Origin: Candidatus Aminicenantota bacterium
Lineage (GTDB): Bacteria; Acidobacteriota; Aminicenantia; UBA2199
DNA length: 12,342 nucleotides
Direction of reading: 5' to 3'
Assembly: GCA_020355945.1 (NCBI GenBank)
Contig: CP070627.1
Location: 776,791-789,132 of the forward strand
Notes under the pieces: generated by a model
Told to the model about the DNA's origin: nothing
The model's database searches: none
The model's input: the letters and a program-made list of their open reading frames with translations, nothing else
Part shown: positions 3,096 to 10,422 of the stretch, piece after piece
Numbering within the stretch: position 1 is the stretch's first letter
How the letters are laid out: every line of letters begins with the position of its first letter
Position numbers and translations under genes: made by a program

Positions 3096-4133
3096 CTAGT
3101 GGGCGATGGGGCTTTTTTTGTTATGACGCACTGATGCCGCGGAGAGGTCTAACGATCCTGACGAATCTGGCAGGGCGGCTTTAATGACCTTGTTTTTCCC
3201 TGATTGTTTGGCTTTGTACAAGGCCTGGTCTGCCCAATGAAATAGGGTGTGGGCATCGGTATTAAGCTCGTACTGACTAACACCGGCACTGATGGTGGCG
3301 GAGATGGCATTGCCTTTATAAATGAGTGGGGTTTCCCGGATGTACTCCCTGATGCGGTTAGCCAGGTGAAACGCTCCATCTATATCGGTTTCCGGCAAAA
3401 TAATTAAAAATTCCTCTCCTCCCACTCGGCCCGGGATATCCTGCTCCCGTAACGAATGATTGATAATAAAAGCAACCTTTTTTAAATACTCATCCCCTGC
3501 CGGATGCCCATAGGTGTCATTGACCCGCTTAAAATCATCAATGTCTATAATCACCACACTGTACACCCGGTTATTGCGTTTGGCAATTTTATGCTGGTTG
3601 TCCAGTTCATTGAGAATATATCTTCGATTGTAAAGACCGGTTAACGCATCAGTAGCAGCAAAGGTAAAAAGCTTTGAATGATATTCCTCCTCGATTTCAT
3701 CATTATAACTAAACCGCAGCACGGTTTCCCCAACGGAAATCTTATCCCCGGAAGTTAAAATCCGCTGCTGGACCAATTCACCATTGACATACGTACCGTT
3801 GGTGGACCCCAAATCCTTTATGACAATCTGCTCCAGGTCATTGGTTTTTATCGTACTGATTTCGCAGTGGACCTTACTGACTTTTGCGTCATTCACCGCG
3901 ATGGTATTCTTTTTCTGATCCCTGCCGATGCGAATACAATCCTTGATGAAATTGTAGGTTTTACCAAAATCAATTTCACTGCCCTGTATAACAGTGAGCA
4001 TGATGTTGAGCCTGGTCTTTTGTTTCTCTTTTAAAAAGGCAGCCCTCTTTTTGTCGAGTAACGTCATTTCATCAGTATCCAGGGTATCTGTGTCCACTAT
4101 TTTGGGTTTTTTAGCCATTTTTATATTTGCCAT
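3096..4133 (-). CDS. Diguanylate cyclase with N-terminal FHA domain
   Basis: This 345-residue soluble protein has no membrane segment and probably makes cyclic di-GMP from GTP in the cytoplasm. An FHA domain spans about 45-140, with its phosphothreonine-binding signatures GRD (70-72), SKVH (86-89) and GSTNGTYVNG (109-118). The GGDEF domain spans about 160-315: DALTGLYNRR (162-171), the catalytic loop as GGEEF (238-242), and an RxxD inhibitory site (Arg229-Asp232) at the canonical five-residue distance. Both activity and product inhibition therefore look intact. FHA domains bind phosphothreonine peptides, so a Ser/Thr kinase may feed into it; no kinase is visible nearby. The start is uncertain. 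GTG 4145, ATG 4133 and ATG 4118 are in frame, none has a ribosome-binding site, and a palindromic repeat begins just upstream at 4140. Confidence 0.93.
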   Translation of the reverse strand: MANIKMAKKPKIVDTDTLDTDEMTLLDKKRAAFLKEKQKTRLNIMLTVIQGSEIDFGKTYNFIKDCIRIGRDQKKNTIAVNDAKVSKVHCEISTIKTNDLEQIVIKDLGSTNGTYVNGELVQQRILTSGDKISVGETVLRFSYNDEIEEEYHSKLFTFAATDALTGLYNRRYILNELDNQHKIAKRNNRVYSVVIIDIDDFKRVNDTYGHPAGDEYLKKVAFIINHSLREQDIPGRVGGEEFLIILPETDIDGAFHLANRIREYIRETPLIYKGNAISATISAGVSQYELNTDAHTLFHWADQALYKAKQSGKNKVIKAALPDSSGSLDLSAASVRHNKKSPIAH

Positions 4134-4205
4134 AAAAAAGCCCACAGATTACACAGATTGGCACAGATTAAAAAAAAATCAGTGTAATCAGTGTAATTTG
4201 TGGGC
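4134..4205 (-). terminator. Probable terminator of sucCD formed by the palindromic repeat
   Basis: In the sucCD direction the palindrome ends in GTGGGC followed by six T, the form of an intrinsic terminator with a very long stem. In the opposite direction the other arm is followed by ATC and seven T, so it could act both ways. Its placement between sucD and the diguanylate cyclase gene fits this role. Confidence 0.55.
4140..4205. repeat. 66-bp palindromic CACAGATTA-type intergenic repeat
   Basis: Imperfect inverted arms of about 30 bases (gcccacagattacacagatt at 4140-4159, and aatcagtgtaatttgtgggc at 4186-4205) flank an A-rich loop. Within the left arm CACAGATT recurs three times at 9- to 11-base steps. 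Sequences of the type 'cacagattacacagatt' are, from general knowledge, frequent in intergenic DNA of several uncultured bacterial phyla and often give spurious predicted peptides. No coding function is likely. Confidence 0.8.
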
Positions 4206-6443: not shown

Positions 6444-8609
6444 TCAAAATTCCTCCTGGAATACTTTACAGTTCTCAAATTCATCCATGACTCTCAAAAA
6501 AATAAATTTCTTCGCCTGGAGGTTTCCCGGACTAAAATCAAAATTCTCAGTTTTCGAATCATTGATCGTATCCACAGGAAACACCGGGTACCACAGTTTA
6601 CCGTCAAAAGAATAAAACACATTGGCAATGATGGAGGTTTTATCTTCTACGGTAAAACGAATGCGATTGCCAGCGACAGAAAAACCGGATACCTCCGGTG
6701 CCGTGGAATCGATCAAAAAAGGTGAGGAAACCAGGTCATTGGACTTAGCCATCGAGGGAGGGTTGGACAGGGAATCATCCGCCTCCACCCGCAGCACATA
6801 CTTCCCATCCTGGTACAACTGGACATCCAGTTCCAGCTTTTTCTCGGTGATATCCTCTTTAATCAGGATCCAATTCCGGGCATTATATTTTTTTATGTAA
6901 ATATTGTACTTTAATTTATCTTTGTTCAGGTCTTTGGCTTCCCACAAAACCGTTAAATAATTAGTATTCCTGGCCTTTTCAGGAGTGGTTTTGGTTTTTC
7001 CACTGGCATTATAAACCCTAACCGCTGGTTTTGAGGTTGGCTTCTTAATTTCTATCTTTTTTAATTGGGGCCCCAGGTTGGATTGGACATAAAAAATTTT
7101 AAAATGCTCCAGGTAGGGCGTTTCCGTGGCATTTTTAGAGGTTAATACCGCTTTCACCTGGAAATAACGGCAGCCGGAAATATTAAGGGAAGAATTCTCA
7201 GGGTTGGTAAAAGGAGCAGACCACTGGGTCCAGGTATTGTCCGGCACATTGGAATTACCAGTGCGTATAAACAGCAGCACTTCCGTTTGCAGGCTGGTGT
7301 TGGCTTCCCAATAGATGCGCCCCAACCTGGACTGGATTTGCAGGTCAAAAATATCCGAATAGTAAATCCCTTTGTTATTCAAGATATCCTGGATTTCAAC
7401 GATGCCAGCGGTGTTGTTGGTGAGAAGTGTAAACCCATTATCCGCATTTTTTTTCTTTCCCGCGATCTTGAAAACCTGTGCGGAATCACTTTCGTAAATG
7501 ATGGCGAAACTGCCGTCTGGTTTTACACTGTATAACCGCCCGGCATCACCGGTTCCAATGATCACACTGTTGTTCTTGCTATCATAAAACGCCGAATAAA
7601 TATACTCGGTTTCAGACGCCCAGATTTTTTCAACAATTCCATCAGTGTGCAAACAATACAACACACTCTTTTCCACTGTCTTCGTCTCTTCTGTTTCTTT
7701 TTCTTTCTTTTTTAAGAAGAGAGGTTTTTCATCGGAACGTTGGATGCGAATTTGACTGGTGAGATATATCTCTTTAGTGGCAGAAAAATAGATATTGCCT
7801 TCGTTGTCTTCGCAAATACCCCGGATTTCTTCAAAGGGAGAATCAAAAAGAACTTTGACTTTTCGGTTATCGATCCGGTAAAGGATGCCCCGATCGCCGC
7901 TTCCAGCCAGTATGGAATTGCTCCTGGTGATATACAGGGAGATGATATGGGTATCCTCGGAGGCGAATATTTGCACGGCCTGCCCGGTAGAGGGAGCAAC
8001 CTGGTACACACCGCCGCTGTTGCCCACGGCACAGATAATATTCTCGGTTCTATCTTCCTTTAAATCCCAGATAAACTTTTCATCCGGGTTAAAAAATTCC
8101 TTTCGGCCTTTATTCTTGGTGATTTTATAAACCTTTCCGTCCGGCGATGTAGCTGCATAAACCGTTTCATTACCGGACCTCGTCACCAGTACCGCGTATA
8201 CATCAAGGTCCTCATCCGATTCAAAAATCATTTCAACGTTGTTGGGTTGATTGGAGAAAGCGCCAGGCGCATCGGACCCAGGCGGGGTCACTGCAGTGGG
8301 GCTTATCCTGTACACCGATGCTTGATGACCGGTCCCCACATAAATATCCCCATTGGCAGCCGTATCAAGAGATAAATAGTACTCTCTGCCAGGCCTGGCA
8401 ATATCCTTAATCCGGGGACCGATAAAAAGACGTCCTTTACTATCCAGGGCAGTACCTTTGAACTGCCCCTCCTGGAAATCATCAAACCGACGTATCTCTA
8501 TCTTTTTCACTTCTACCCCATAGAGATTCAAAGCCGCAGTCGTTACCATTACCAGGAAAACCAACCAAAATAGAACATATACTGGAGTAACACTTGTTTT
8601 ATTGATCAT
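6444..8609 (-). CDS. Membrane-anchored beta-propeller / beta-sandwich protein
   Basis: This 721-residue protein has a hydrophobic N-terminal segment (about 10-29) that is a signal peptide or anchor; the rest should be outside the inner membrane. Residues about 50-410 contain propeller-like blades with recurring motifs such as GDIYVGTG, ETVYAATSPDGKVYKI, SILAGSGDRGILYRI and SVIIGTGDAGRLYSVKPDG. A lysine/glutamate-rich insert (300-314) interrupts one blade. A conserved-looking sandwich domain follows (about 424-515; SRLGRIYWEA, IRTGNSNVPDNTWTQWS, RYFQVKAVL), then a fibronectin-III-like region (about 525-635) and a final sandwich (638-721, with FYSFDGKLWYPVFPVD). I infer ligand or protein binding, not catalysis. 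The start overlaps the end of the S55 gene by 11 bp (8599-8609), with GAGAGG just upstream, so translation is coupled and the two products probably work together. Confidence 0.85.
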   Translation of the reverse strand: MINKTSVTPVYVLFWLVFLVMVTTAALNLYGVEVKKIEIRRFDDFQEGQFKGTALDSKGRLFIGPRIKDIARPGREYYLSLDTAANGDIYVGTGHQASVYRISPTAVTPPGSDAPGAFSNQPNNVEMIFESDEDLDVYAVLVTRSGNETVYAATSPDGKVYKITKNKGRKEFFNPDEKFIWDLKEDRTENIICAVGNSGGVYQVAPSTGQAVQIFASEDTHIISLYITRSNSILAGSGDRGILYRIDNRKVKVLFDSPFEEIRGICEDNEGNIYFSATKEIYLTSQIRIQRSDEKPLFLKKKEKETEETKTVEKSVLYCLHTDGIVEKIWASETEYIYSAFYDSKNNSVIIGTGDAGRLYSVKPDGSFAIIYESDSAQVFKIAGKKKNADNGFTLLTNNTAGIVEIQDILNNKGIYYSDIFDLQIQSRLGRIYWEANTSLQTEVLLFIRTGNSNVPDNTWTQWSAPFTNPENSSLNISGCRYFQVKAVLTSKNATETPYLEHFKIFYVQSNLGPQLKKIEIKKPTSKPAVRVYNASGKTKTTPEKARNTNYLTVLWEAKDLNKDKLKYNIYIKKYNARNWILIKEDITEKKLELDVQLYQDGKYVLRVEADDSLSNPPSMAKSNDLVSSPFLIDSTAPEVSGFSVAGNRIRFTVEDKTSIIANVFYSFDGKLWYPVFPVDTINDSKTENFDFSPGNLQAKKFIFLRVMDEFENCKVFQEEF

Positions 8610-10422
8610 CTGTCCTCTCTTTAATTTTTAATTTAAACAGTTTTTTACCCCTCACCACACTGGGAAATTCCAACTGGTATTCTTTGATGGTGGAATATTT
8701 GATTTGGGACTGATCGCCAGGGGATACGCCCTGGATGGGTGTTGAATTATAAGTAAACACATTTTGCAAACTGTCGGGGAGGTTAGGGTACTCATGGCCC
8801 TTGACGAACAATCCTTTGCTGGGGGTCATTAATTTAAAATACATGCGGTTATTCTTTCTTAAGTTATTGATGGCACGAATTAAAAAGCTTAACTTTGTAG
8901 GGAAATAGGAGGTTCTTACATTTTTAGCATCGAATTGGACCATTTCCTGGTTGTCCGCCACCATCAGGTAAAATTCCGAACTGGCTTTCAGATTAGGGGC
9001 TTTAAGTTGTATGCTCTCTGAAAAAGCCCTGCCCCGTTCATTCCTTAAATAGACAGTGATATTCATGATCTCGCCAGGGTAAAAGGAGGTTTTGTCCATC
9101 AAAACGTTTTCAAGGTTTGCCTGCCGCAGGATTTCAGAACCGCGTATTTCAAAGTCCATCTTTTGAATTTTGATGTTCTTTTCATTGTTGTTCATAAGAA
9201 AATAATTGATGACCAATAACAAATTGCTGAAATTTATAAACGAGTCCTGTCCGCTGAACAGGTCGTCGATTACAATATTTTTTTCACCTTCGATGAATAT
9301 TTTTCCATCGACTTTTATGGATTGAAACCCCACCTGTTGGTATTCGGAGGTCAATACATTAAGAATAGAAAAAGCCGAGAGTAGAGGGGTTAATAGGGGA
9401 TGGTTGACCAATTCGATATTGAACCGGTGATCCCGGTTTCTTAAAAAGATCTTCAGGGGAATCAGGTAAGGAGGTTTTCCCAGTTCTCCCTGGACTGCGG
9501 AGAACCGGTCTTGCACCACCCGGCCCACCATATTCCTGGTGGATACCAATTTGAAGGATTCCTGGAAAGAGGGAACCACGGAAATCACCTCGCCCTTGTG
9601 CATAGGAAAATCCACGGTGCCAAGATTAAAGAAGGGATGACCGAAGGCGTAAATCTTATCTCCATCAACGTGGGTTACGCTGCCGTAGGCGGCATATTCA
9701 AAGTCACCTTTTATCAAGGGGATGGTAACCACATCAGCAGGAGAAATCTTTAACGGGTCGGCCGTAAAAGTGGTGGACGCGTCGGCATTGGTATTGGTGG
9801 TAATTTTGAGGCTGTCACCCGCTGAAAACGCAGGCTTTAAAAAAGGGAAATAAGAAAACGTTGACGGTCTGAACCCTCGCTGGATACCAAGCAAAGGAAT
9901 CGGACTAAACGACTCGTGGGGAGTAAAATTGAGCCGATGGGCTAACTCTTCCCGGATCAACTCCGATATAAATGACAGGTTTTTCTTGTCAAACTCCATC
10001 TTTATGGTAGAAATATCAATGGAAAAGGTGGGGGTATTGTATTCCGATGTTTCCAGGATATCTTCAATCGGCGTAATACCGCCGATGGGTTTCTTTGAAA
10101 AGAGAAATCCATAAGCAATGGCCCCGATCAATTTTCCATCGATATACGCCGGACTTCCGCTCATACCGGATATGATCCCGCTGTCATTCAGGGCCGGTGC
10201 GTCCAATTCCACTATGATCAAGTCTTTGTTAGGCGAAAATTTCTCAATAATTCCCAATACTTTAAAGGGAAAGGTCTCAATCTTCGTACCCTGGAAAATA
10301 GTCTTTCCCATGCCTTCCATGCCGGTTTTGATCTCCGATACCTTCATTATCTCCACGGCCTGGAGGCAAAAGCAAAAGAACAGGCTTATTATAGTTATTG
10401 TTATGACGGTTAATTTTCTCAT
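8599..10422 (-). CDS. Secreted SpoIVB-like (S55) peptidase-domain protein
   Basis: This 607-residue protein has a signal peptide at about 1-22 (MRKLTVITITIISLFFCFC). An S55-type serine half follows: GMEGMGKTIFQG (34-45) and GMSGSPAYIDGKLIGAIAY (86-104), with Ser88 the likely nucleophile and Asp74, 14 residues before it, a candidate acid. A second conserved block lies at about 247-318, with GDKIYAFGHPFFNLG (254-268; His262) and KGEVIS. It resembles the histidine region of SpoIVB, but there it precedes the serine motif. No histidine occurs before Ser88; the first is His162. There is no recognisable PDZ domain. Residues about 440-607 look like beta-sandwich domains. In Bacillus, SpoIVB is a secreted signalling protease of sporulation; no sporulation genes are visible here. 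The start codon overlaps the regulator's stop as ATGA, and the gene downstream overlaps by 11 bp. Confidence 0.87.
   Translation of the reverse strand: MRKLTVITITIISLFFCFCLQAVEIMKVSEIKTGMEGMGKTIFQGTKIETFPFKVLGIIEKFSPNKDLIIVELDAPALNDSGIISGMSGSPAYIDGKLIGAIAYGFLFSKKPIGGITPIEDILETSEYNTPTFSIDISTIKMEFDKKNLSFISELIREELAHRLNFTPHESFSPIPLLGIQRGFRPSTFSYFPFLKPAFSAGDSLKITTNTNADASTTFTADPLKISPADVVTIPLIKGDFEYAAYGSVTHVDGDKIYAFGHPFFNLGTVDFPMHKGEVISVVPSFQESFKLVSTRNMVGRVVQDRFSAVQGELGKPPYLIPLKIFLRNRDHRFNIELVNHPLLTPLLSAFSILNVLTSEYQQVGFQSIKVDGKIFIEGEKNIVIDDLFSGQDSFINFSNLLLVINYFLMNNNEKNIKIQKMDFEIRGSEILRQANLENVLMDKTSFYPGEIMNITVYLRNERGRAFSESIQLKAPNLKASSEFYLMVADNQEMVQFDAKNVRTSYFPTKLSFLIRAINNLRKNNRMYFKLMTPSKGLFVKGHEYPNLPDSLQNVFTYNSTPIQGVSPGDQSQIKYSTIKEYQLEFPSVVRGKKLFKLKIKERTDDQ

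What the first reader, a model, noticed from the sequence alone, without database searches (positions are those of the whole stretch)
8599..10422. S55 protein with serine and histidine motifs in reversed order
The sequence shows GMSGSPAY (Ser88) near the N-terminus with no histidine before it, while the AFGHPF block (His262) lies about 170 residues later. In Bacillus SpoIVB, as I know it, the GALGH histidine block precedes GMSGSP. Flanking residues also fit a swapped order: the text around His262 (G-x-V-T-H-V-D-G-D-K-I-Y-A-F-G-H, then KGEV) resembles the N-terminal half of the SpoIVB domain, and the text around Ser88 resembles its C-terminal half. This suggests a circular permutation, or a pseudo-protease keeping only part of the site.
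Basis: partly seen in the sequence, partly recalled or inferred. Interest (0 to 1): 0.75.

Follow-up and report, generated by a model that had tools for sequence, protein, structure and literature searches.

The report
Barrel-swapped SpoIVB-like protease
This gene encodes a probably secreted bacterial protein built from the two halves of a sporulation-type serine protease joined in the reverse order; its predicted active-site residues were unchanged in the relatives examined, so it is probably a working, naturally rearranged protease whose job is unknown.

Summary
The gene (minus strand, 8599-10422, 607 aa) has GMSGSP (Ser88) about 170 residues before AFGHPF (His262), the reverse of SpoIVB. 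Residues 21-107 match only the second half of the S55 profile (108-195 of 210). Residues 225-345 match SpoIVB's His barrel: barely by HMMER, but clearly by profile-profile alignment with shuffle controls, also with the His block masked. So both barrels are present in swapped order: a circular permutation.

It looks active. In 144 aligned rows His262, Asp240 and Asp305 never vary; Ser88 never varies in the 142 rows that have it (part of them fetched by its motif). Asp305 lies where chymotrypsin has Asp102 (recalled) and probably aligns with SpoIVB Asn290 (Asn in 87 of 88 rows of a narrow sample); SpoIVB's crystal structure left its third catalytic residue unsettled.

PF05580 matches 363 of 396 genomes of the phylum of L019 (Acidobacteriota, name inferred); all listed matches are half-profile. 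A propeller-like gene lies within 1 kb downstream in 62 of 74 loci with enough sequence. Not shown: the Ser88-His262 distance (no coordinates) and proteolysis itself.

The parts
8599..10422 (-). whole gene: S55-like protein of 607 aa with barrels in swapped order
   Evidence: ORF; PF05580 over its cut-off (36.3 vs 25 bits); AF2 model mean pLDDT 90.8, pTM 0.88
10357..10422 (-). residues 1-22: hydrophobic N-terminus, probable signal peptide or anchor
   Evidence: read from the sequence; helix 2-17 in the model; no signal-peptide program was run
10042..10347 (-). residues 26-127: Ser-bearing barrel plus short helix, equivalent to SpoIVB about 318-413 (its C-terminal barrel)
10159..10161 (-). Ser88, predicted nucleophile (GMSGSP)
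   Evidence: 102 of 102 rows, though 66 of these were fetched with patterns that include GMSGSP; 40 of 40 further rows that have the region
9751..10041 (-). residues 128-224: linker that joins the end of the Ser barrel to the start of the His barrel
   Evidence: lower pLDDT at about 190-220; no match to SpoIVB
9442..9750 (-). residues 225-327: His-bearing barrel, equivalent to SpoIVB about 198-316 (its N-terminal barrel)
   Evidence: hhalign to the SpoIVB His-barrel profile with shuffle tests; best ungapped blocks; residues 225-345 fold alone at pLDDT 95.4
9703..9705 (-). Asp240, invariant; equivalent to SpoIVB Asp213 (D/E)
   Evidence: 144 of 144 rows; SpoIVB D 69, E 19 of 88
9637..9639 (-). 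His262, predicted catalytic base; equivalent to SpoIVB His236
   Evidence: 144 of 144 rows; register
9508..9510 (-). Asp305, predicted catalytic acid; at the Asp102 topological position (recalled); probably equivalent to SpoIVB Asn290
   Evidence: 144 of 144 rows; strand order; ungapped block 298-314 with 283-299, tied top of 11,639 window pairs; the gapped alignment pairs it otherwise
8602..9441 (-). residues 328-607: C-terminal domain without a named match, includes an INNLRKNNR motif
   Evidence: no Pfam match; confidently modelled; not folded or searched apart
6444..8609 (-). downstream partner gene, 721 aa, hydrophobic N-terminus, propeller-like; overlaps the protease gene by 11 bases
   Evidence: Reg_prop 25.4 vs cut-off 20.4 bits over 19 residues, fn3 below cut-off; within 1 kb downstream of the protease gene in 62 of 74 loci with at least 800 bases downstream

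Best explanation
It is a protein of the SpoIVB (S55) type, most likely a secreted serine protease, in which the two beta-barrels of the chymotrypsin-like fold come in the reverse order: Ser barrel, linker of about 100 residues, His barrel, then a C-terminal domain. The break lies in what is the inter-barrel stretch of SpoIVB, and the old ends are bridged by the new linker. The barrels are inferred to pack as in SpoIVB, so that Ser88 (nucleophile), His262 (base) and Asp305 (acid) form one active site. The N-terminus probably sends it out of the cytoplasm. Its partner or substrate is probably the propeller-like protein encoded next to it. Shown: order, homology of both halves, invariance of the residues, wide distribution, gene pairing. 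Inferred: export, the shared active site, Asp305 as the acid, catalysis, the role of the partner.
For: Ser half: PF05580 108-195/210, 9lnf E 3.5e-05, hhalign E 5.7e-16 to the SpoIVB Ser barrel but 0.081 to its His barrel. His half: hhalign to the SpoIVB His barrel with GTVT and GH in register, E 0.0027; global score 16.8 against a maximum of 11.7 in 499 column shuffles, local 23.2 reached by 1 of 499; with residues 256-272 masked, 0 of 200 shuffles reach the local or the global score. Of 11,639 ungapped 17-column window pairs the two top registers (tied) are collinear and flank H262=H236. Two of 20 isolated His halves scanned alone match PF05580 below its cut-off, in its first half: 12-93 (E 0.014) and 13-38 (E 0.071). 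Of residues other than Gly, Pro and hydrophobics only S88, S90, D240, H262 and D305 are invariant in 102 rows. Model pTM 0.88. In the His half His262 follows the third strand and Asp305 ends the fifth, and most VIA rows for it are PA-clan barrels.
Confidence: 0.74

Rival explanations
1. Permuted fold but not a protease: a binding or scaffold protein that keeps the site for structural reasons.
For: No activity shown; the Thr393 position is lost; no acid is proven. The SpoIVB crystal paper itself finds no acid in place near His236 (PMC12502668).
Against: His262, Asp305 and Asp240 never vary in 144 rows, Ser88 in 142, including 8 divergent members that PF05580 missed; no member with one of these residues replaced was found among those rows.
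Confidence: 0.14
2. The barrels are swapped between molecules: the Ser barrel of one chain completes the site with the His barrel of a second chain (domain-swapped dimer), with the long linker allowing it.
For: The linker of about 100 residues has low confidence at about 200-220.
Against: The single-chain model has pTM 0.88, which suggests a defined barrel packing in the monomer; no dimer was modelled.
Confidence: 0.1
3. No permutation: only the Ser half is of S55 origin, and the later half is an unrelated small barrel with a GHPF motif.
For: HMMER alone barely links the His half to S55; a local match of comparable strength is the AIGNPFG hairpin of HtrA C-barrels, score 28.1, E 0.00038, reached by 0 of 200 shuffles.
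Against: The match to the SpoIVB His barrel covers about 100 columns, beats the global shuffles and survives masking of the GHPF block; the HtrA match is 18 columns only.
Confidence: 0.07
4. Assembly or annotation artefact.
For: None.
Against: 3230 homologues at E up to 0.001 among 7996 scored; same order in 34 of 34 PF05580 loci read.
Confidence: 0.01

Closest known systems
SpoIVB, peptidase family S55 (Bacillus subtilis; PDB 9lnf; PMC12502668)
   Same: Both barrels homologous; GMSGSP Ser; GH His; GTxT and G-x4-[DN]-x6-G blocks; a similar IExxL segment after the Ser barrel
   Different: Barrel order reversed; no PDZ domain detected; Asp305 where SpoIVB probably has Asn290; Ala/Ser instead of Thr393; extra linker and C-terminal domain; found in Acidobacteriota and others
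HtrA/Deg proteases (PA clan, Trypsin_2)
   Different: No PF13365 match at E up to 1; order His before Ser in HtrA (the loci were chosen so; general order recalled); sequence profiles do not align beyond one hairpin
Circularly permuted NlpC/P60 papain-like enzymes (PMC3142127; start of the abstract seen in a listing)
   Same: A natural circular permutation of an enzyme fold that moves the catalytic nucleophile to the other end of the chain
   Different: Cysteine nucleophile, papain-like fold

Membership tests
Peptidase S55 (PF05580) | match over the curated cut-off | tested here: met
   36.3 vs 25 bits, but only profile 108-195 of 210
Peptidase S55 (PF05580) | His barrel before Ser barrel, collinear with the profile | tested here: not met
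   Ser half first; the later half aligns with the first part of the domain
Peptidase S55 (PF05580) | Ser nucleophile in GMSGSP and a conserved His | tested here: met
SpoIVB equivalog (TIGR02860) | curated cut-off 305.25 bits | tested here: not met
   32.8 bits
SpoIVB equivalog (TIGR02860) | PDZ domain before the protease domain | tested here: not met
   no PDZ family at E up to 1; by sequence only
SpoIVB equivalog (TIGR02860) | Thr393 near the site | tested here: not met
   Ala 70, Ser 31, Gly 1 of 102
SpoIVB equivalog (TIGR02860) | role in sporulation | not tested
   no sporulation genes were looked for
PA clan, chymotrypsin-like fold | two beta-barrels | tested here: met
PA clan, chymotrypsin-like fold | Ser, His and acid meet between the barrels | not testable with these tools
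   no coordinates are returned
PA clan, chymotrypsin-like fold | sequence order His-Asp-Ser (recalled) | tested here: not met
   order Ser88-His262-Asp305
HtrA/Trypsin_2 (PF13365) | Pfam match | tested here: not met
   no match at E up to 1
Serine protease | proteolytic activity | not testable with these tools
   needs the bench

The most novel reading that the evidence does not exclude
A natural circular permutation that exchanges the two whole barrels of a chymotrypsin-like protease, spread through most of a phylum and paired with its own propeller-like protein. It keeps a full Ser-His-Asp triad (Ser88, His262, Asp305) of which the sporulation protease SpoIVB has lost the acid (Asn290), which would explain why SpoIVB's third residue has been unclear.
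Probability: 0.5. Interest if true: 0.85.

Novelty: new variant of a known kind. Interest (0 to 1): 0.72.

Why it matters
Permuted papain-like enzymes are in print, but the listings seen here show no natural barrel-swapped chymotrypsin-like protease (and 15 of 238 papers). If active, this shows that the two-barrel active site can assemble with the barrels in the other order, and gives a large natural set for studying it. It points to a testable acid position (Asp305, probably Asn290 in SpoIVB). It also names a widespread, mostly single-copy two-gene module in Acidobacteriota for which I found no study; where sources name the protein at all they mostly write hypothetical protein, now and then SpoIVB peptidase S55 domain-containing protein.

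Tried and rejected
Asp74 as part of the site: rejected, not conserved. Pseudo-protease: not supported. Search for degenerate members: 20 of the 33 genomes without a PF05580 match (the 20 that one search lists) were searched with A2; 8 had a member, 12 had none; all 8 keep H262, D240 and D305, and Ser is kept in the 6 whose open frame has the region. Tandem or canonical-order intermediates: none among the 34 loci read; the three open frames of about 1000 residues there hold one Ser block each, and L105 has a second GISGGP after its FGH. HtrA as a bridge family: a profile of 18 HtrA sequences (18 of 30 loci fetched; 12 dropped because my motif test failed on them) aligned with neither half beyond noise, except an 18-column match of the GHPF hairpin to AIGNPFG of the HtrA C-barrel (0 of 200 shuffles); this is unexplained and counted against. 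The same HtrA profile did not clearly match SpoIVB either, so it does not tell which barrel is which. A first hhalign/hmmsearch with only Bacillus-type SpoIVB gave no significant His-half match. The His-half profile against PDB sequences did not list 9lnf. 9lnf is also not among the 50 VIA rows of the His half. NCBIfam on isolated His halves gave only scattered hits of other families. Masking the His block raised the scores against SpoIVB instead of lowering them; I have no full account of that, but the shuffles were masked in the same way. Own-genome search: no genome held.
Full report
What is there. The gene lies on the minus strand at 8599-10422 and encodes 607 residues from an ATG. Upstream, a 131-residue response regulator overlaps it by 4 bases. 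Downstream, a 721-residue protein overlaps it by 11 bases. Two genes with succinyl-CoA ligase domains follow.

His half. Here sequence evidence had to be built up. HMMER with isolated His halves gives PF05580 as the family matched by most members, but only 8 of 67 at E up to 10, best E 0.013, and not the window's own. Of 20 members scanned one by one, two matched, both under the cut-off: L064 on profile 12-93 (E 0.014) and L021 on 13-38 (E 0.071), that is, on the first half of the profile. Against a Bacillus-type SpoIVB profile nothing was significant. With clostridial sequences added (88 rows picked from the 244 at hand, mostly Sedimentibacter-like and Bacillus-like) hhalign aligns the His half with the SpoIVB His barrel, with GTVT and GH in register (local E 0.0027), better than with the Ser barrel (0.011) or the PDZ part (0.071). 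In 499 column shuffles the global score (16.8) was never reached (maximum 11.7) and the local score (23.2) was reached once. With residues 256-272, the His block itself, masked, the scores were 32.4 local and 23.7 global, against maxima of 20.0 and 12.1 in 200 equally masked shuffles. Among 11,639 ungapped 17-column window pairs the two top registers, tied, were 298-314 with SpoIVB 283-299 and 242-258 with 214-230. They are collinear, and the GH block lies between them in both proteins. So both halves of the S55 domain are present, in swapped order.

Active site. In 102 rows (102 of 199 sequences at hand, chosen at 75% identity) the invariant residues other than Gly, Pro and hydrophobics are Ser88, Ser90, Asp240, His262 and Asp305. 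The 66 locus rows were fetched by patterns that include GMSGSP, so Ser88 is partly chosen; His and Asp are not. In 42 further rows (34 fetched by PF05580, of which five come from genomes already sampled, and 8 divergent ones that PF05580 missed) His262, Asp240 and Asp305 are present in 42 of 42, and Ser88 in 40 of the 40 that have letters there. Asp74 varies. In the 88 SpoIVB rows the position paired with Asp305 by the ungapped blocks is Asn in 87 and Ser in 1, and that of Asp240 is Asp in 69 and Glu in 19. The SpoIVB crystal paper (PMC12502668: abstract, passages, sections 14 and 16 read) reports Asp363 about 24 A from His236 and proposes Thr393 as third residue. Here the Thr393 position is Ala 70, Ser 31, Gly 1. 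I take Asp305 as the more likely acid and Asp240 as second choice. The gapped hhalign alignment pairs Asp305 with a different SpoIVB residue than the ungapped blocks do, so the Asn290 equivalence is likely, not certain.

Distribution. In the phylum of L019 (a record titled Candidatus Aminicenantes; the sample also holds the genome of Acidobacteria bacterium Mor1, so I call it Acidobacteriota) PF05580 matches 363 of 396 genomes; 14 of these show two matches by my count, the rest one; every match in the capped list begins at profile position 102 or later. In the phylum of L064 (titled Planctomycetota) it is 19 of 79, and in that of L056 (titled Gemmatimonadetes; the sample also holds L035's genome, titled Latescibacterota) 16 of 16, all listed matches half-profile. 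Of 20 of the 33 genomes without a match, 8 hold a divergent member found with the alignment. The 34 fetched PF05580 loci all show S then H. The window's own genome is not held; the nearest records are titled Candidatus Aminicenantes.

Partner. The 721-residue gene has relatives on the same strand within 1 kb downstream of the protease gene in 63 of 79 loci, 62 of the 74 with at least 800 bases downstream; in four of these the gap exceeds 700 bases, so another gene could lie between. It is the only neighbour so conserved (59 of 80 loci including the window in the stricter clustering; the next family has 12). The 12 loci without it include Pyrinomonadaceae and Blastocatellia records. One Reg_prop stretch over its cut-off (25.4 vs 20.4 bits) and an fn3 match below its cut-off are the Pfam evidence. 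A shared function is inferred from pairing alone.

Literature. Searches for SpoIVB with peptidase S55 (no paper), circular permutation with chymotrypsin-like serine protease (4 papers), SpoIVB with Acidobacteria, circularly permuted trypsin-like protease (15 of 238 listed), S55 names, PA clan with permuted and chymotrypsin fold with circular permutation showed no report of this permutation in their titles and abstract starts; most of these papers were not opened. Passages of PMC8841776, PMC6411480 and PMC6581720 were read. The first states that SpoIVB peptidase (S55) is absent in two Acanthopleuribacteraceae but widely detected in other acidobacteria; the passage does not mention the order. 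PMC6581720 reports that SpoIVB S378A has no proper catalytic triad or oxyanion hole. The library holds open-licence papers only.

Verdict. The finding is real. It is best called a new, permuted variant of the S55 protease domain, most likely active. The claim of a shared active site and of the acid awaits coordinates and mutants.

Noticed in passing
window 8599-8609 and 10419-10422: The response regulator, protease and propeller-like genes overlap by 4 and 11 bases, suggesting one transcript with coupled translation; the response regulator has relatives in only 5 of 79 loci.
   Followed up: partly
window 9613-9666 (residues 253-270): This stretch with GHPF resembles the AIGNPFG hairpin of HtrA C-terminal barrels over 18 columns, score reached by 0 of 200 shuffles; unexplained.
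   Followed up: partly
PDB 9lnf chain A: The chain sequence reads GMAGAP where my SpoIVB sequence has GMSGSP, so both serines appear as Ala although the entry is named S378A only.
   Followed up: no
SpoIVB alignment, position 380: The second Ser of GMSGSP is Cys in 46 of the 88 SpoIVB rows, while it is Ser in all 102 rows of the permuted family (66 of them fetched by that motif).
   Followed up: no
window 8839-8880 (residues 515-528): The INNLRKNNRMY block in the C-terminal domain is among the best conserved parts of the family; no named match. It was one of the two fetch patterns.
   Followed up: no
window 6444-8609: Propeller-like partner family with a conserved Gly/Trp pattern (59 sequences); function not known to me.
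   Followed up: partly
window 3096-4145: FHA domain fused to a GGDEF diguanylate cyclase domain.
   Followed up: no
L117 (NZ_CP142397.1): A 13.7 kb record labelled plasmid carries recN, spoIVB and spo0A; the same protein also sits on a 3.0 Mb contig (P0241), so it may be a chromosome piece.
   Followed up: no
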